Shown here in pieces: positions 17,593-24,223 of a stretch of 36,917 nucleotides of DNA (position 1 is its first letter; the number at the start of each line of letters is the position of its first letter). The stretch spans positions 1 to 36,917 of the forward strand of contig JAFQFD010000040.1 of NCBI GenBank assembly GCA_017415715.1, in the 5' to 3' direction. A program made the translations under genes and the position numbers. The stretch comes from Bacteroidales bacterium. GTDB taxonomy: Bacteria > Bacteroidota > Bacteroidia > Bacteroidales > UBA932. Under the pieces are notes generated by a model. That model did no database searches and was not told the origin of the DNA. It saw nothing but the letters and a program-made list of their open reading frames with translations.

Positions 17593-19263
17593 TTATTTCT
17601 TGAAGAATCCGAGGGTTGATTTCACTGCTCTCCAGCTGCCGTCCATGTGGTTGATCATGCCGGCTCCGCTGACCCACATTCCAGTGGAGCCGCCGCCGTC
17701 AAGGTTCATGGCATGCACGCAGCCGAGACTCTTCATGATCGGGCCGAGCTCCTTCATGTATGCTCCCTGGCTAGCATCAATGCGGCCGTCGCATATGAAG
17801 AGGACGATCTTGCCGTCTGCTGTCACTCCGACAGCAGACCTGTCCGGATGAGCGGAATATACTCCCGACTCGTCCCAGCACTCGTAATTTGTATAATAAT
17901 GAGTGTCGTCGACCATGGTGTTGTCTGCAGAAACCTTTCCGTCATAGAGGACCATAGGGCCGCAGCTGATTGCATAATACGGCTTCCACTCCACAGCATC
18001 CACAGGTGATGTGGCGCTTACTTTTCCATATTTCGCCTGACCTACGACATTTGCCTGCGGGCGGTCATAGTAATAGAATGTGCCCTGCTGAGGGACCCCC
18101 ACCCAGTATGCAGCTGCCTTTCCATCCTTGTCAACGCCTATTATCGGTCTGGTGACCTGATATAGCTGACTGTTTGAGGCCCAGTAACAACCTTCTATCT
18201 CACCATGCCACTCCTGGGTCATCTGACCTTCAGTGAAGATCACTCCGATGTTGTAGTTTCCATATATGGCTCCGTTGATCAGAGCAAGGCAGTCTCCTGC
18301 GGCCTCAGCCTGGGACTGGACAGTCTTCTTTGAGCCTTTGGTTTCAGGATACATAACGCGGAAATCGACCTTGGAAGGGTCTGCAACGGCATACCATGCA
18401 TTGAAATTGCGGCCGTTCAGCTGCGATGTGGTCTTATAGATCTCGACTCCTTCCATACCTTCGTAAGTCTGCTTTTCCCATGCAAGCTGAGGTGTTTCCG
18501 GCTGAGCTTCAAGCTTCACTGTCTGAGGCTCGCTGTAGCGGTATGTGTCGCCGTCCTTGATGAATGCGCTCATCTGATATTCCTTGCCGTCCTCGAGGTA
18601 TGCGTTCGGCACTACCTGGAGGATTTCAGCGTTGGCAGAAATCTGAGGTCCAAGCACCTTTATGTCATCCACAGAAGGCGCGCCAGTCTCGCTGAAGCAG
18701 ATACCATGCTCCGGATTGGCTCCCGCGATCTGCTGTACTTTGTAACTGACTGCTACATAAGCATATGAGGTCTTGACTGACTTTATTTCAGGTATCTTTT
18801 TCGGGTCCGTTTCAGGCACTGCAGGGTCGTCCTTCGGGTCCTCCGGATCTGCAGGTGTTTCGGGGTCTTCAGGATCCTCCGGGTCCTCTGGAATCTCTGG
18901 GGCAGGAAGCTCATAGTTCAGAAGATAAACCACCTGGGAATTCAACTTGAAATCTTCCGAGACGGCCTGGACACCGAAGTCATAGACAGCCCCGGCCTCA
19001 AGCCCCGAAAACTCATATTCAACAGCATCTGCCGCTACGGTTGCCACCGGATCCACATAGTATGAATCCCCTTCTCCACGGAGGAAGAGCCTGTATCCTT
19101 TTTCGCCCTGGGCGTTGTCGGTCCAGGTGAGGACTACGGTCGTAAGGTCTTTCGGCTCCGCCTTGAGACCTGAAGGGTCTGCAAGAGGTGCTGCTTCCGG
19201 AGCCGGCTTCTGACATGAAGAAGCCATCATCACGATGGCAAGAAGTGTAAGGTGAATTTTCAT
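17593..19263 (-). CDS. Phosphodiester glycosidase (NAGPA-type) lipoprotein with FN3-like modules
   Basis: The 556-residue product is a predicted lipoprotein (MMASSC, Cys17). An FN3-like module (about 28-112) is followed by an acidic Pro/Glu/Asp linker (about 115-155, repeated PEDPED units) and a second beta-sandwich module (about 155-252). A C-terminal NAGPA/DUF2233 domain (about 270-556) follows, with the signatures DRSAVGVT, FICDGR and NLDGGGST (520-527). The eukaryotic relative removes GlcNAc from a phosphodiester-linked mannose. Bacterial members are thought to cleave sugar phosphodiesters. I chose ATG 19263 because it immediately precedes the signal peptide. The longer open frame to 19389 would cross both divergent promoters. 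It is the first gene of the minus arm. Confidence 0.82.
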   Translation of the reverse strand: MKIHLTLLAIVMMASSCQKPAPEAAPLADPSGLKAEPKDLTTVVLTWTDNAQGEKGYRLFLRGEGDSYYVDPVATVAADAVEYEFSGLEAGAVYDFGVQAVSEDFKLNSQVVYLLNYELPAPEIPEDPEDPEDPETPADPEDPKDDPAVPETDPKKIPEIKSVKTSYAYVAVSYKVQQIAGANPEHGICFSETGAPSVDDIKVLGPQISANAEILQVVPNAYLEDGKEYQMSAFIKDGDTYRYSEPQTVKLEAQPETPQLAWEKQTYEGMEGVEIYKTTSQLNGRNFNAWYAVADPSKVDFRVMYPETKGSKKTVQSQAEAAGDCLALINGAIYGNYNIGVIFTEGQMTQEWHGEIEGCYWASNSQLYQVTRPIIGVDKDGKAAAYWVGVPQQGTFYYYDRPQANVVGQAKYGKVSATSPVDAVEWKPYYAISCGPMVLYDGKVSADNTMVDDTHYYTNYECWDESGVYSAHPDRSAVGVTADGKIVLFICDGRIDASQGAYMKELGPIMKSLGCVHAMNLDGGGSTGMWVSGAGMINHMDGSWRAVKSTLGFFKK

Positions 19264-19283
19264 AATCACTGAATTATCGGGTG

Positions 19284-19315
19284 CAAAATTAGTAATTTTG
19301 TATTGGATATTGCAA
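19284..19315 (-). promoter_or_regulatory. Promoter of the minus arm
   Basis: On the minus strand TAATTTTG (19291 down to 19284) matches the -7 consensus TAnnTTTG. A TTG (19315 down to 19313) stands 21 bases upstream as the -33 box. The start codon at 19263 follows about 20 bases after the -7 box, so the leader is very short. Confidence 0.6.
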
Positions 19316-19332
19316 GAATTTGCGTACTTTTG
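19303..19332 (+). promoter_or_regulatory. Promoter of the plus arm
   Basis: TTG at 19303-19305 and TACTTTTG at 19325-19332 form a -33/-7 pair with a 19-base spacer. It interlocks with the minus-arm promoter: the two -33 regions lie side by side in the middle, so one regulator site or one bending event could affect both arms. Confidence 0.6.
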
Positions 19333-19378
19333 CACCACACTACACCACACTAAATTAAAAAAACACATTTTCAGCACG

Positions 19379-20755
19379 ATGAAAGGCACTCACAAGTACT
19401 ATAAATGGGAGGTTCTGGGACTCCTCTGGATGGCATATCTGCTCAACCAGGCAGACCGTCAGGTGTTCAATACAGTACTCCCTGCAATCCGTGATTCTCT
19501 CAACCTCACTGACACATCGGTAGGTCTCATCGCCACCGTATTCAACCTCTGCTACGCATTCATGGTGCCGCTCGGAGGAATGGCCGGCGACCGCCTCAGC
19601 CGCAAGTGGGTGACCACCATAGCGATCCTCTTCTGGAGCGTTGCGACCATGTTCACAGGACTTGCAACAGGCGTTGTGATGCTCATACTCATGCGAAGTG
19701 TGGCCACCGGCGGCGGAGAAGCATTCTTCGGACCTGCCAACTATTCGCTCCTGGGTCAGTATCACACAGACACCAGAGCCCGCGCGATGTCCATCCACCA
19801 GACTTCATACTATGTGGGAGTGATCCTCGCAGGATGGCTTGCGGGATATATCGCTGACAAGCTCGGCTGGCAGTACTCGTTCATCATCTTCGGTGCAGCC
19901 GGCATCATCTGGGGCATTGTGATGGCCTTCCGTCTCAAGGATAAGGAGATGCCCGATCAGGTCGGGCATGACGACAATGTGCAGAACTGTAATGACAACG
20001 GGCATGACAGGACGATGGAGGACGTGGAATATGACAACGGGCATGACGACAATATGCTGAACTGTAATGACGAAGAGATATCCGACCGTCATTCCCGACT
20101 TGATCGGGAATCTCAAAAGCCAGGCATCTTCGACGGCTTCAAAACAGTGTTCACCACACCTACAGCCCTCGTTCTGACAATAGGATTCAGCGGATTCATC
20201 TTCGTTATCACAGGCTACATGACCTGGGTGCCTGCCTTCCTCCAGGAGGAGTTCGGCCAGACACAGGCCGCAGCAGGCTTCAACTCGATGTTCTGGACAT
20301 ACCTCGCCGCATTCGCCGGAGTGCTCCTCGCCGGCACGCTTTCAGACAAGTTCGCTGTCCGTGACCGCAAGGTAAGGATGGTAATCCAGGGCGTGGGACT
20401 CATCCTCGGAGCCGCGTTCCTCTTCTTCGTGGGAAGCAACATGACCCTCTGGCTCATCTATCTCTGCTTCGCCGGATGGGGATTCTTCAGGGCATTCTTC
20501 GATGCAAACATATATACAGTGCTCTATGACGTGACGCCGGCAAGACTCCATGCCTCATGCTCAAGCGCCCTCATCACCACAGGATTCGCCGTCGGTGCCC
20601 TCGCTCCGGTGATACTCGGAGCAATGAAGGACAGCATGGGCAGCCTCTCGGCGACATTCCCTGTCCTTGGAGCCGTATGGATCGTATGCGGAATCCTGAT
20701 GCTCATTGTCAGCAGGACGCACTACCAGAAGGATTATGACAAAATAAACAGATAA
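19379..20755 (+). CDS. MFS sugar transporter with a repeat-derived insert in the central loop
   Basis: The 458-residue product is a 12-helix major facilitator protein of the inner membrane. Features include NQADRQVFNTVLPAI after helix 1 and the loop motif GGMAGDRLSRKW (66-77). The closest general resemblance is to the anion:cation symporter group, which carries sugar acids and related solutes, but the substrate is uncertain. Residues about 190-246, between helices 6 and 7, are hydrophilic, rich in Asn and Asp, and encoded by a composite palindromic repeat (19948-20112). Without this insert the protein would be about 403 residues, a common MFS size. The start at 19379 fits the promoter, while the open frame back to 19298 crosses the promoter. 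The next gene starts 2 bases after the stop. Confidence 0.85.
   Translation: MKGTHKYYKWEVLGLLWMAYLLNQADRQVFNTVLPAIRDSLNLTDTSVGLIATVFNLCYAFMVPLGGMAGDRLSRKWVTTIAILFWSVATMFTGLATGVVMLILMRSVATGGGEAFFGPANYSLLGQYHTDTRARAMSIHQTSYYVGVILAGWLAGYIADKLGWQYSFIIFGAAGIIWGIVMAFRLKDKEMPDQVGHDDNVQNCNDNGHDRTMEDVEYDNGHDDNMLNCNDEEISDRHSRLDRESQKPGIFDGFKTVFTTPTALVLTIGFSGFIFVITGYMTWVPAFLQEEFGQTQAAAGFNSMFWTYLAAFAGVLLAGTLSDKFAVRDRKVRMVIQGVGLILGAAFLFFVGSNMTLWLIYLCFAGWGFFRAFFDANIYTVLYDVTPARLHASCSSALITTGFAVGALAPVILGAMKDSMGSLSATFPVLGAVWIVCGILMLIVSRTHYQKDYDKINR
19948..20112. repeat. 165-bp composite palindromic (REPIN-like) insert inside the MFS gene
   Basis: Two inverted copies of one hairpin repeat mark the ends. At 19948-19972, ATGCCCGA pairs with TCGGGCAT. 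At 20088-20112, ATTCCCGA pairs with TCGGGAAT. Both have 5-base loops and flanking GTCAT/ATGAC ends. Between them lie two direct copies of a 34-base block (19963-19996 and 20038-20071, 32/34 identical, offset 75 bases). The block copies surround a 30-base segment (20008-20037) that matches 21489-21518 at 29/30 positions. The total is 55 codons, so the reading frame is kept. Confidence 0.85.
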
Positions 20756-20757
20756 TT

Positions 20758-22221
20758 ATGAAAGCCGAACTTAAAAACAGGAAGCCGAAAGCAGGAGTAC
20801 TTCTGATAGCTTCCCCAAGGTTCAAGAACCTTTCCGGTCCTCAGAGAGGAACATACGGAGAGAGAAAGGAAAAAGCGGTCAAGGAAATCCTCGGAACGAT
20901 GGACTTCCTTGACTTGGTGTATCCGGGCATAACCTATGAAAGAGAGGATGCACAGAAGGCCATGGACATGTTCTACGCTGAAAAAGTAGACTTCATCTAT
21001 GCCGAGTTCCTCTCATGGAGCGAGGACTTCGCATGGATCCGCTTCCTGCGCGACTGCCCTGATATCCCTATCATCTTCTGCAACGTGGCAAAGCCTAAGA
21101 TGACTTTCGAGACCACTCTTGACGAGGATGACTTCGTTGATTATCTATGCGCCGGCACGCTCGTAGGCTCTCTCGAGGCTTCCGGAAGCATCAGGAGGGT
21201 GCCTCGCAAGAACGTGAAGACCGTCATGGGAACACGCGAGGAAGTTACCGAAAAGCTCAAGGTCTATGCAAATGCAGCAAGGACACGCGCAATCCTCCGC
21301 CACTCGAACGTAGGCCTCATGGCCAACATGAACGAGGCGATGTGGAGCACATATTTCGACAATTACGACCTCTTCACCAAGATAGGTCCTGAGATCCATT
21401 ATCTCCCATACAGCGACTACGGCACTGAGATCGACAATCTCACCGACGAGGAGGTGAAGGCATACGCCGACGAGCTCACAGGCAAGTACAGGATGATGGA
21501 GGACGTGGAATATGACAAGTTCATCGGATGCGTCAAGGCGACCCTCGGCATCAAGAAGCTCGCAGAAAAGAACGACATAGACTGCTATGTATATAATGAC
21601 ATAGACCAGGCAACATTCAGGACAGCAGGCTGCCGTGCCGGATTCTATCCTCAGTGGTTCAACGAGAACGTGAGCGTGCTCGTGCCTGAGGCCGACATAG
21701 GAGCAGGTCTTATCACATACATCCTCAAGCTGATGAGCGGCAGGAACGTGAACTTCGTGGAGCCGTTCCACATCGAGGATGAGTTCGGCACATTCGCCGG
21801 AGGACACGCTGGTCCTAACGACCACAACGACCCAGACTGGCAGGAGAACGTCATCATCTCACGCGACGTACGCTTCGCAAAGACCAGCTGGAAGTATGCG
21901 GGAGCTCCATTCGCATGGTACCGCTTCAGCCCGGGAATGAAGACTGTCGCAGGCCTCTACGAGGAGGGTGGAAAGTACAAGCTCATCACCTTCATGGCAG
22001 AGAGTCTCTCGGAGAAGGACACTCCGCAGAGCGACAAGAAGCATCTCCTGGCAACATACAGCCACACTATATTCAGGCCGGTTGTCCCTGCAAAGGAGCT
22101 GTGGGAGCAGGTGCTCCGTATCGGAGCGACACAGCACTACGCCATCGTAGACGGCGACTGGCGCAAGGAGCTCGAGGACTTCGCTGAGATGATGAACTTC
22201 GAATTTTATAGTATAAAATAA
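20758..22221 (+). CDS. L-arabinose/L-fucose isomerase-like sugar isomerase
   Basis: The 487-residue product has no signal peptide and the length and layout of AraA/FucI-fold ketol isomerases. Candidate metal ligands can be lined up with E. coli AraA (Glu306, Glu333, His350, His450): Glu311 in VPEADIGAG, Glu335 in FVEPFHIED, His350 in GGHAG and His460 in ATQHYAIV. The C-terminal HYAIVDG...LEDFAEMMNFE segment resembles the AraA tail. The family converts aldoses to ketoses in the cytoplasm. Overall similarity to classical AraA appears low, so it is probably a divergent subfamily with its own substrate. It is cotranscribed with the MFS gene (2-base gap). Bases 21489-21518 are duplicated inside that MFS gene. 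Confidence 0.75.
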   Translation: MKAELKNRKPKAGVLLIASPRFKNLSGPQRGTYGERKEKAVKEILGTMDFLDLVYPGITYEREDAQKAMDMFYAEKVDFIYAEFLSWSEDFAWIRFLRDCPDIPIIFCNVAKPKMTFETTLDEDDFVDYLCAGTLVGSLEASGSIRRVPRKNVKTVMGTREEVTEKLKVYANAARTRAILRHSNVGLMANMNEAMWSTYFDNYDLFTKIGPEIHYLPYSDYGTEIDNLTDEEVKAYADELTGKYRMMEDVEYDKFIGCVKATLGIKKLAEKNDIDCYVYNDIDQATFRTAGCRAGFYPQWFNENVSVLVPEADIGAGLITYILKLMSGRNVNFVEPFHIEDEFGTFAGGHAGPNDHNDPDWQENVIISRDVRFAKTSWKYAGAPFAWYRFSPGMKTVAGLYEEGGKYKLITFMAESLSEKDTPQSDKKHLLATYSHTIFRPVVPAKELWEQVLRIGATQHYAIVDGDWRKELEDFAEMMNFEFYSIK

Positions 22222-22222
22222 A

Positions 22223-22332
22223 GATTGCCGGTCAAGCCGGCAATGACGACATAAAATAGAAACGTCATCCTCATAAAATAGAAACGTCATCCCCATAAAA
22301 TAGAAACGTCATCCCCGACCTGATCGGGGATC
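22223..22332. repeat. Composite palindromic repeat between isomerase and ManA-like genes
   Basis: A hairpin repeat at 22223-22247 (ATTGCCGG with CCGGCAAT) and one at 22308-22332 (ATCCCCGA with TCGGGGAT) face in opposite orientation. They enclose tandem 22-bp units. The outer bases (GAT...ATGAC, GTCAT...GATC) match those of the insert in the MFS gene, and the stem sequences differ by paired, pairing-preserving changes. The element fills nearly all of the 130-base intergenic gap and ends 20 bases before the ManA-like ATG. Confidence 0.85.
22250..22315 (+). repeat. Three tandem 22-bp units
   Basis: Three head-to-tail units (22250-22271, 22272-22293, 22294-22315) differ only in the last base. 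Each consists of an A/T-rich half (CATAAAATAGAAAC) followed by GTCATCC, which is the outer end of the palindromic repeat. The third unit merges into the complete hairpin at 22308-22332. The array looks like stepwise duplication of the repeat border. Confidence 0.85.
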
Positions 22333-22351: not shown

Positions 22352-24223
22352 ATGAGTTTCATGTACAACCCGTTTCCGTTTGACGATCCGAAACCGATCA
22401 ACAGACCGAAACTTTCAGAAAAGACCATCAACTCCATAGTGGCAGGAGGAACTCCGAATGTCGCAAAGAAATTTGTCGCGCAGATCGCCGACAGGGCAAA
22501 GGCAGAGGGTGTGATCGTCGGTATCGACGGATACACCACAGCCAACTGGAACCTCTTCGTCAACCTTGTGGCAAGAGAGTGCGTCATCAACGGCCTTGAG
22601 CTTGAAGTTGTCGATGCAGCCAAGGCTGTCTTCAAGTCAGGCAAGGAGATCGACGACATGATCGACCCGCTCCTGATCTGGGACACAAAGATCGACCCTA
22701 CCCTCCTCTACGGAAAGCTTTACCACGGAGGTTACATCGGTCTTTTCGACCAGACGAAGATGGAGCAGTTCCGCAATGATGTTCCTGCCATGAAGGCACC
22801 TGGAAAGCTCGTCGTTGTTGCCGGATACGGCTGCATGACCGCAGAGCTCCGCGACCTCTATGACATCAAGTGCTGGTTCGACATCACTCCGATGAAGACC
22901 ATGCTCCGCATCAGAGGCGGTGAATATTCAAACATCGGCAAGGAACGTCCGGGCATCATCAACCGCACCATCCGCCGCTGCTACTACTGCGACTTCGAGT
23001 GCGCGGTGCAGCTGAGAAAGGACCTCTGGAAAAACAACGTTCCAGACTATTTCTTCCTTGACAACGACCCTAAGAAGCTCCAGATGATGCCTTTCGAGGC
23101 TTTCTCGGAGATCTGCGCAGAGCTCGTGAAATATCCGTTCCGAGCAAAGCCATGCTACCTCGAGGGAGTATGGGGCGGTTCATATATGAAGAAGCATCGC
23201 AACCTTCCTGAGGAGATGAGGAACGCCGCATGGGTGTTCGACTTCATCCCAATGGAGGTCAGCGTACTTGTAGAGGCAGGCAAGGAAATGCTCGACATCA
23301 ACTACTGCTCATTCGTTCACAAGGAAGGCATCAACCTCATGGGTGAGAAGTGCGTGAACAAATACCAGGGATACTTCCCTATCCGCTTCAACTGGGACGA
23401 CTCATACCACTCTACAGGCAACATGTCCATCCAGTGCCACTCGGACGGCAAGTTCAACATCGAGAACTACAACGAGTTCGGCCGTCAGGACGAGAGCTAC
23501 TATGTGGTGGTCACAGGCCATGAGGCTAAGACTTTCATCGGATTCCGCGACGATGCGGACATCCCTCAGTTCTTCAAGGAGATCGAGGATGCCGACACAA
23601 AGCAGATCCCATGCGACTACATGAAGTATGTAAGCTATGAGGATTCGGTTCCAGGCCTCCAGGTGATGTTTCCTGCAGGAACAATCCACTCAAGCGGACG
23701 CAACCAGGTGATCCTCGAGATCGGCTCGCTCACTATCGGTTCTTATACATATAAGATGTATGACTACCTCCGCCTCGACTTCGACGGCAAGCAGCGTCCT
23801 ATCCACACTTACCTCGGAGAGAAGTGCGTGAACCAGAACAGAAGGGCTTCCGTGATCCACGATCCGAACAGCCCTGACTACATAGTGCAGAAGCCTCGCC
23901 TCGACGCGAAGGGAGAAGGCTGGGAGGAGTACATCCTCGGCGAGAACCCTCAGATGTACATCTCGCTCCGCCGCCTCGAGTTCGAGAAGATGTGCGAGCA
24001 GGACACAAAGAACGAGAAGTTCCATGTCCTTACTCTCGTAGACGGCGACAGAGCTCGCGTACGCAGCGTGGAGCATCCTGAGCGTCACTATGACATGGAG
24101 TTCATGGACATCGTATGCGTGCCTGCAGACATGGGAAAATATGTTGTGGAAAACCTCGGCAGGGAGCCGATCCGCATCCACAAGACAACCCTTCGTGAAG
24201 GATTTGAAAACGATGAAAAATAG
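22352..24223 (+). CDS. ManA-like (type I phosphomannose isomerase fold) protein with degenerate kinase-like N-terminus
   Basis: The 623-residue product has two parts. Residues about 300-600 resemble the type I phosphomannose isomerase cupin, with candidate zinc ligands Gln361 and His363 (SIQCHSD), Glu381 (DESYY) and His446 (PAGTIH). Residues about 50-260 resemble a uridine-kinase-type P-loop fold. VIVGIDGYTTANWN (54-67) stands where a Walker A would be but has no GKS/T, and VVVAGYGCMTAELRDLYDIKCWFD (154-177) resembles the later strand of that fold. The N-terminal part may therefore be inactive or serve a binding role. The family converts aldose and ketose phosphates. The sugar is unknown here. 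The ROK gene overlaps its last 11 bases. Confidence 0.65.
   Translation: MSFMYNPFPFDDPKPINRPKLSEKTINSIVAGGTPNVAKKFVAQIADRAKAEGVIVGIDGYTTANWNLFVNLVARECVINGLELEVVDAAKAVFKSGKEIDDMIDPLLIWDTKIDPTLLYGKLYHGGYIGLFDQTKMEQFRNDVPAMKAPGKLVVVAGYGCMTAELRDLYDIKCWFDITPMKTMLRIRGGEYSNIGKERPGIINRTIRRCYYCDFECAVQLRKDLWKNNVPDYFFLDNDPKKLQMMPFEAFSEICAELVKYPFRAKPCYLEGVWGGSYMKKHRNLPEEMRNAAWVFDFIPMEVSVLVEAGKEMLDINYCSFVHKEGINLMGEKCVNKYQGYFPIRFNWDDSYHSTGNMSIQCHSDGKFNIENYNEFGRQDESYYVVVTGHEAKTFIGFRDDADIPQFFKEIEDADTKQIPCDYMKYVSYEDSVPGLQVMFPAGTIHSSGRNQVILEIGSLTIGSYTYKMYDYLRLDFDGKQRPIHTYLGEKCVNQNRRASVIHDPNSPDYIVQKPRLDAKGEGWEEYILGENPQMYISLRRLEFEKMCEQDTKNEKFHVLTLVDGDRARVRSVEHPERHYDMEFMDIVCVPADMGKYVVENLGREPIRIHKTTLREGFENDEK

What the first reader, a model, noticed from the sequence alone, without database searches (positions are those of the whole stretch)
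19948..20112. REPIN-like palindromic element coded in frame inside an MFS transporter
Two inverted copies of one hairpin repeat bound a 165-bp insert (55 codons) that keeps the reading frame open and adds a hydrophilic Asn/Asp-rich segment exactly in the cytoplasmic loop between helices 6 and 7. The matching family in the 22223-22332 intergenic gap shows that it is a dispersed element, not native MFS sequence. Repeat elements that become protein segments are known in Rickettsia and some others. I am not aware of a case in a Bacteroidota sugar transporter.
Basis: partly seen in the sequence, partly recalled or inferred. Interest (0 to 1): 0.85.

Follow-up and report, generated by a model that had tools for sequence, protein, structure and literature searches.

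The report
Selfish hairpins written into transporter loop
Small mobile DNA hairpins have inserted in frame into one flexible loop of a transporter protein, and relatives of this gut bacterium carry different hairpin families in the same loop and in loops of other proteins, so selfish DNA keeps rewriting these protein segments.

Summary
Residues 190-245 of an MFS transporter (19379-20755) are encoded by two inverted CGTC-type REP hairpins (19948-19972, 20088-20112) around a ladder of half-repeats. The hairpin has 58 strict copies in the genome; the reversed control pattern has 0. The closest relative's protein does not differ outside the loop (1191 nt, 25 differences, all synonymous), but its loop holds a piece of another palindrome family. 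On a tree of 84 distinct orthologues, 19 carry one of three palindrome families in this loop, needing at least 14 state changes. In this genome RimM, TsaB, TilS, MetH, TrmN and a DPP4-like peptidase also carry such hairpins in frame; at TsaB and DPP4, relatives hold different families in the same loop.

It is not a REPIN in the strict sense: interiors differ, no strict copy lies beside the three Y1-transposase genes, and some comparisons suggest that hairpins arrive singly. About 40 nt of the interior copy the neighbouring gene.

In-frame REPs are known from Rickettsia, Wolbachia and others. What looks new is repeated turnover of several families at the same loops, in Bacteroidales.

The parts
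19379..20755 (+). MFS transporter gene, 458 codons plus stop, carrying the insert
   Evidence: Open frame; Pfam MFS_1 E 1.8e-58
19948..19972 (-). First REP hairpin (tag faces inward), read in the protein as MPDQVGHD
20088..20112 (+). Second REP hairpin (tag faces inward), read in the protein as RHSRLDRES
19963..20071 (+). Interior ladder: a 34-nt stretch twice (19963-19996 and 20038-20071, 94% alike, 75 bp apart), each starting with the half-hairpin CGGGCATGAC
   Evidence: the repeat finder family D4
19998..20037 (+). Interior piece copied from the next gene (source 21478-21518)
   Evidence: 90%, E 2.2e-8, the only strong match outside the insert in the own genome; ungapped core of 31 nt at 97%
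21478..21518 (+). Likely source of the copied piece, inside the downstream gene 20758-22221
   Evidence: the peptide MEDVEYDKFIG is kept in the orthologous genes of relatives printed in full or with small changes
22223..22332 (.). Second element in the gap after the next gene: hairpins 22223-22247 (-) and 22308-22332 (+) around three 22-bp units (22250-22315)
   Evidence: no hairpin at this place in L091

Best explanation
The insert is mobile selfish DNA that became protein. CGTC-type REP hairpins landed in the permissive loop that joins the two halves of the transporter and are tolerated there, because the hairpin consensus has no stop in four of its six frames and encodes short hydrophilic peptides (VIPDLIGD, HSRPDRES, IPDQVGDD, FPIRSGMT; read from the consensus). 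Shown: dispersed family, inverted pair, open frame, a relative that differs only by synonymous changes outside the loop and has another palindrome in it, and repeated occupation of the same loop by several families. Suggested by a few comparisons: hairpins arrive singly, a second one settles in inverted orientation across host sequence, and tag plus spacer then multiply in tandem in whole codons. Inferred: selection removes insertions that break the frame or a fold, so that survivors sit in loops. The copy of about 40 nt of the next gene points to template switching during repair or replication (inferred). What moves the hairpins is not settled; a Y1 (RAYT-like) transposase acting from elsewhere in the genome is possible.
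For: 58 strict copies against 0 for the reversed pattern; 53 of 58 with the CGTC tag and 55 of 58 with all eight stem pairs, the variable stem positions changing together. G000 against G026 outside the loop: 25 synonymous and 0 non-synonymous codon changes; loops 61 against 15 residues. R hairpin with at most two mismatches in 9 of 75 loops and in 0 of 750 equal-length segments elsewhere in the same genes. Tree: 19 of 84 loops with family R, T or A, fewest changes 8, 6, 3, any family 14. The family in the loop is mostly dispersed in the same genome. Six other genes of this genome carry in-frame hairpins, and DPP4 and TsaB hold different families in different relatives. Single arrival: host GAAGGCCAG lies between the two T hairpins of L043 and in the unfilled loop of L137; RimM of G032 shows only the left hairpin. 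Growth: MetH of G026 has one GGCAATGAC unit where G000 has three, one of them with a changed base.
Against: L092 and L095 share nearly the same inverted pair although they are 85.8% identical elsewhere, so pairs can also be inherited or exchanged whole. The family in the loop is not always abundant in its genome: 0 strict R copies for L125, 5 for L142, 5 A copies in G026, and 6 T against 48 R in the genome of L099, whose loop is called T. 32 of 80 inner branches of the tree are drawn open, and gains cannot be told from losses. No transcript or protein data were available, so expression and neutrality are untested.
Confidence: 0.82

Rival explanations
1. A REPIN in the strict sense: the inverted pair with its interior is one mobile unit moved by a RAYT transposase.
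For: The pair is inverted; three Y1-transposase genes are in the genome. Across 200 genus genomes R hairpins and Y1 genes go together: both in 94, hairpins only in 11, Y1 only in 49, neither in 46; Fisher p 2.4e-9, not corrected for relatedness. L092 and L095 share a nearly identical pair.
Against: Interiors of the 13 pairs differ; 32 of 45 clusters have one strict hairpin; no strict copy within 1.5 kb of the Y1 genes; 5 genomes with 10 or more hairpins show no Y1 match, though most of them are incomplete; one-hairpin states are seen in RimM and TilS relatives.
Confidence: 0.12
2. The loop peptide is selected: the hairpins give a useful acidic linker or an RNA hairpin that tunes translation of the transporter.
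For: The loop is filled again and again, the inserts are hydrophilic, and stem pairing is kept in 55 of 58 copies.
Against: Families, lengths, orientations and peptides in the loop vary widely, and many orthologues have 12-17 residues there without a recognised palindrome. The same families sit in unrelated proteins. Pairing is kept genome-wide, which speaks for a constraint on the element, not on this loop.
Confidence: 0.1
3. Native loop sequence that resembles the repeat by chance or by biased composition.
For: The loop is naturally variable in length: 12 to 61 residues in 94 rows.
Against: A 25-nt match to a family with 58 copies and 0 for the reversed pattern; 9 of 75 loops against 0 of 750 control segments.
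Confidence: 0.01
4. Assembly artefact: short repeats misjoined contigs of a metagenome assembly.
For: The genome is fragmentary (56 contigs, 86% complete) and the interior contains a copy of a nearby gene.
Against: The frame is open and the next gene follows in the same order as in relatives. Comparable inserts of several families occur in this loop in other assemblies. The copied piece differs from its source (90%).
Confidence: 0.02

Closest known systems
CGTC-tagged REPs (Di Nocera et al. 2013, PMC3733652; abstract, parts 1-2 of the text, section 15 and part 1 of the discussion seen)
   Same: CGTC tag, stem of 8 pairs beginning with AT, loop of 5, presence in Bacteroidetes stated there, units inside genes, no transposase gene associated with them.
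   Different: Pairs here face inward (10 of 13), rare in that survey; the tail is not CCA; ladder interiors; several families take turns at the same loops.
Rickettsia palindromic elements (RPE) and Wolbachia elements (WPE) (PMC3733652 sections, PMC2635572 and PMC4224334 passages seen; the original Ogata papers recalled only)
   Same: Palindromic repeats inserted in frame in many unrelated genes, taken to leave the proteins working.
   Different: Another phylum, free-living gut bacteria as far as the record titles tell, different consensus sequences, and fast turnover of families at one loop between close relatives.
Intragenic REPs at the same site of recB in two Xanthomonas species (PMC3733652, section 15)
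   Same: Different REPs at about the same site of orthologous genes.
   Different: There one pair of genes; here 19 of 84 orthologues of one gene, with at least 14 changes of state, and loops of further genes.
REPIN / RAYT systems (PMC3116915 and PMC8049555, starts of abstracts in a search listing only)
   Same: Dispersed inverted pairs of REP hairpins.
   Different: No conserved interior, no strict copy beside the Y1 genes, singles dominate, tag CGTC.

Membership tests
CGTC REP (features from PMC3733652) | Terminal CGTC tag (TGTC allowed) | tested here: met
   53 CGTC, 4 TGTC, 1 AGTC of 58
CGTC REP (features from PMC3733652) | Stem of 8-9 pairs starting with AT, loop of 4-5 | tested here: met
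   55 of 58 with 8 of 8 pairs, 3 with 7; loop of 5 nt. The search pattern itself demanded part of this
CGTC REP (features from PMC3733652) | Tail fitting CCA | tested here: not met
   Commonest three bases after ATC: TAA 10, TAT 8, TCC 6, TCA 6 of 58
CGTC REP (features from PMC3733652) | Pairs mostly with tags outside (HH), inward pairs rare | tested here: not met
   10 inward, 3 outward of 13 strict pairs
CGTC REP (features from PMC3733652) | Units inside genes occur | tested here: met
   11 of 58 copies in frame in nine open frames; relatives compared for seven of the nine
CGTC REP (features from PMC3733652) | No associated transposase gene | tested here: inconclusive
   None beside the Y1 genes, but raw co-occurrence with Y1 in the genus
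REPIN (definition recalled) | Two inverted REPs | tested here: met
REPIN (definition recalled) | Conserved interior, moves as a unit | tested here: not met
   Interiors of the 13 pairs differ in length and sequence
REPIN (definition recalled) | RAYT gene flanked by the same REP | tested here: not met
   0 of 3 Y1 genes have a strict copy within 1.5 kb; decayed copies not sought
Rickettsia RPE | In-frame insertion in genes of many functions, protein otherwise intact | tested here: met
Rickettsia RPE | Sequence homology to a named RPE family | not tested
   No RPE sequence was at hand in the calls
MITE | Target-site duplication flanking the element | tested here: inconclusive
   Filled and unfilled loops show a few bases replaced at the joints and no evident duplication by eye; the pairs are too diverged to decide

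The most novel reading that the evidence does not exclude
Loops as landing pads: a palindrome already present in a tolerant protein loop attracts or templates the next one, so that unrelated hairpin families displace one another there, gain inverted partners, multiply in codon-sized units and pick up pieces of neighbouring genes. Selfish hairpins would then be a main engine of loop evolution in this genus, inserted one hairpin at a time without a transposase gene beside them.
Probability: 0.3. Interest if true: 0.8.

Novelty: new variant of a known kind. Interest (0 to 1): 0.62.

Why it matters
In-frame palindromes have been described in Rickettsia, Wolbachia and some other genomes, while it remains open what moves CGTC hairpins and whether the proteins are hit at random. 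A genus of uncultured gut Bacteroidales here offers filled, differently filled and unfilled versions of the same loops at short distances. That makes the order of events, the unit of movement and the tolerance of proteins directly testable, and it shows selfish DNA supplying new protein segments again and again.

Tried and rejected
Chance match: rejected (58 copies against 0 for the reversed pattern). RAYT as the mover: raw co-occurrence in 200 genus genomes is strong but uncorrected for relatedness, and 49 genomes have Y1 genes and no strict hairpin, so no mover is claimed. Clean empty site in the closest relative: not found for the transporter loop, which holds another palindrome's piece there; cleaner contrasts are L043/L137 for the loop and L091 for the gap at 22223-22332. 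Structure of the loop by prediction: not possible. Novelty in print: the searches listed no paper that by title or start of abstract reports in-frame REPs in Bacteroidota. PMC3733652 names Bacteroidetes among CGTC carriers; its table of intragenic REPs (Additional file 3) was not seen, so an earlier case cannot be excluded. Not compared with relatives: the hairpins at the C-terminal ends of FolK and of an unnamed open frame on C5. Hairpins in open frames of doubtful reality (such as C9:3241, C15:11319 and 11398, C28:619) were not counted as coding. Gene names rest on best matches: for RimM and TrmN the NCBIfam score is below the curated cut-off, while RimM passes in Pfam. Rows dropped: searches used 75 of 81 loops (six were not parsed); the tree used 84 distinct of 94 rows. 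The loci of G026 and G021 fetched were not analysed further.

Full report
What is there. The gene at 19379-20755 encodes a 458-residue MFS transporter. Residues 190-245 come from an insert bounded by two inverted copies of one hairpin, 19948-19972 and 20088-20112. The pattern GTCATNNCCGNNNNGNNCGGNNATC occurs 58 times in the genome, its reversed control 0 times. Of the 58 copies 53 carry the CGTC tag and 55 have all eight stem pairs. The variable stem positions change together: CC/GG 36, TG/CA 10, GC/GC 5, TC/GA 4, GG/CC 1, with TC/GG and CC/GA once each as imperfect pairs; the inner position is G-C 32, A-T 25, G-T 1.

Where it sits. A hydropathy scan puts the insert between hydrophobic segments 168-186 and 263-281; the scan finds 10 segments, fewer than the 12 helices of the fold. 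The profile of 15 orthologues aligns this stretch with the long loop between the halves of DgoT, 6e9n. That this loop is cytoplasmic follows from established knowledge of the MFS fold. No structure could be predicted.

Interior. Between the hairpins lie 115 nt with a ladder: a 34-nt stretch occurs twice at 94%, 75 bp apart, each starting with the half-hairpin CGGGCATGAC. Searched against the own genome, the interior has one strong match elsewhere, 21478-21518 in the next gene (90%, E 2.2e-8), with an ungapped core of 31 nt at 97%. Both places are read in the same frame, MEDVEYD. A piece of the neighbouring gene was thus copied into the element. The element at 22223-22332 has the same build, inward hairpins around three 22-bp units.

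The closest relative. The transporter of G026 differs outside the loop by 25 synonymous codons and 0 non-synonymous ones in 1191 nt. Its loop is KEDADAPRNDEKKPG and its DNA contains CGTCATTGCGAGGAGCG at C43:5438-5454, a piece of another dispersed palindrome, here called family A. L091, with the same MFS protein, has no hairpin in the gap after the next gene. The two near relatives therefore hold different palindromes in the same loop, and the change is recent.

Recurrence in this loop. A scan of public genomes returned the best 80 of 212 relatives, titled mostly as Bacteroidales MAGs, many from ruminant gut. With the relatives there are 84 distinct proteins in 94 rows. By fixed rules 19 of 84 loops carry one of three families: R (this one, at most three mismatches) 10, T (GTCATYCTGAG) 6, A (at most one mismatch) 3. 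On a tree built without the loop columns the fewest changes are R 8, T 6, A 3, any 14. Gains cannot be told from losses, and 32 of 80 inner branches are drawn open, so the numbers are approximate. Control: R hairpins with at most two mismatches in 9 of 75 loops, in 0 of 750 equal-length segments elsewhere in the same genes and in 0 of 750 shuffled loops; at five mismatches the control segments reach 17 of 750.

Are they dispersed in their own genomes? T pattern matches: 86 in G027 (L043), 37, 130, 52, 19 and 6 in the genomes of L129, L135, L118, L119, L099; 0 in G000. A, up to one mismatch: 5 in G026, 29 and 46 in those of L094 and L104, and 8 in G000; one control match, in G006. R: 58 in G000 and 49 in G019; 23, 55, 23, 41, 77, 41, 5 and 0 in those of L092, L093, L095, L115, L128, L155, L142 and L125. 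So mostly yes, with weak cases: L125, L142, G026 and L099, whose genome has 48 R against 6 T.

Other genes. Of the 58 copies 11 lie in frame in nine open frames of this genome: the transporter (2), RimM, TsaB, TilS (2), MetH, TrmN, a DPP4-like peptidase, the end of FolK, and the end of an unnamed frame. Six of these genes were compared with two to four relatives. DPP4: R in G000, A in G021, a palindrome resembling T in G032, none in G026 and G034. TsaB: R in G000, a decayed R in G026, R in the other orientation in G032, A in G021, none seen in G034; in a second TsaB loop another tag ladder in G000, A in G021, none in G026. TilS: A in one loop of G000 and not in G021; an R pair in another loop where G021 has one R-like hairpin. 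RimM: two hairpins in G000, one without its tag in G032, none in G021 and G034. MetH: one hairpin shared by G000 and G026. TrmN: R in G000; G032 has no strict copy, though a similar palindrome is visible by eye.

How it probably grows. In L043 the two T hairpins lie on either side of GAAGGCCAG, which the unfilled loop of L137 also has; outside the loop the two genes are 91.9% identical with 92 synonymous and 3 non-synonymous codon changes. RimM shows a one-hairpin state in G032 and TilS in G021. MetH of G026 has one GGCAATGAC unit where G000 has three at 18-bp steps, one with a changed base. These few cases suggest single arrival, then an inverted partner, then tandem growth in whole codons. 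Against it, L092 and L095 share nearly the same pair although they are 85.8% identical elsewhere.

What moves it. Three Y1-transposase genes are present, none with a strict copy within 1.5 kb. In 200 genus genomes R hairpins occur in 105 and Y1 genes in 143: both 94, hairpins only 11, Y1 only 49, neither 46; Fisher p 2.4e-9 without correction for relatedness; five genomes have 10 or more hairpins and no Y1 match. The 2013 survey saw no transposase gene with CGTC REPs (PMC3733652). The question stays open.

Comparison with the known. Tag, stem and loop fit the CGTC class; the inward pairing (10 of 13) and the tail do not, so I call the hairpin CGTC-type and do not file it in a named family. In-frame palindromes are known as RPE in Rickettsia, in Wolbachia (PMC4224334, passages seen) and as intragenic REPs of several genera, and different REPs at about one site were noted for recB of two Xanthomonas species (PMC3733652, section 15). 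New, as far as can tell, are the frequency of turnover by several families at the same loops, its presence in Bacteroidales, the ladder interior and the copied neighbour sequence. Most subscription papers and the supplement of the 2013 survey were not seen.

Noticed in passing
window 17593-19389: A gene with a phosphodiester glycosidase domain (NAGPA) and an fn3 domain lies beside the transporter on the other strand.
   Followed up: no
window 20758-22221 and 22352-24223: The two genes after the transporter have no Pfam match at E 0.001; the first has only a weak NCBIfam resemblance to L-arabinose isomerase, the second none. Relatives keep the order.
   Followed up: partly
G000 C22, C34, C56, C21, C30: All 8 family A matches in this genome lie on the + strand of their contigs, 0 on the - strand. 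Contig orientation is arbitrary, so this may be chance.
   Followed up: no
L092 and L095, transporter loop: Nearly the same inverted hairpin pair and spacer in two genes that are 85.8% identical elsewhere: long kept, or exchanged by recombination.
   Followed up: partly
L138 and L044/L140, transporter loop: Another shared, longer segment (ADRPDRVF.AQPEIRKGEKAAGG) in this loop that belongs to none of the three families and may be a further dispersed element.
   Followed up: no
L009, L010, L011: Three Y1-transposase-like genes of about 300-350 open codons in this genome, without a strict hairpin nearby.
   Followed up: partly
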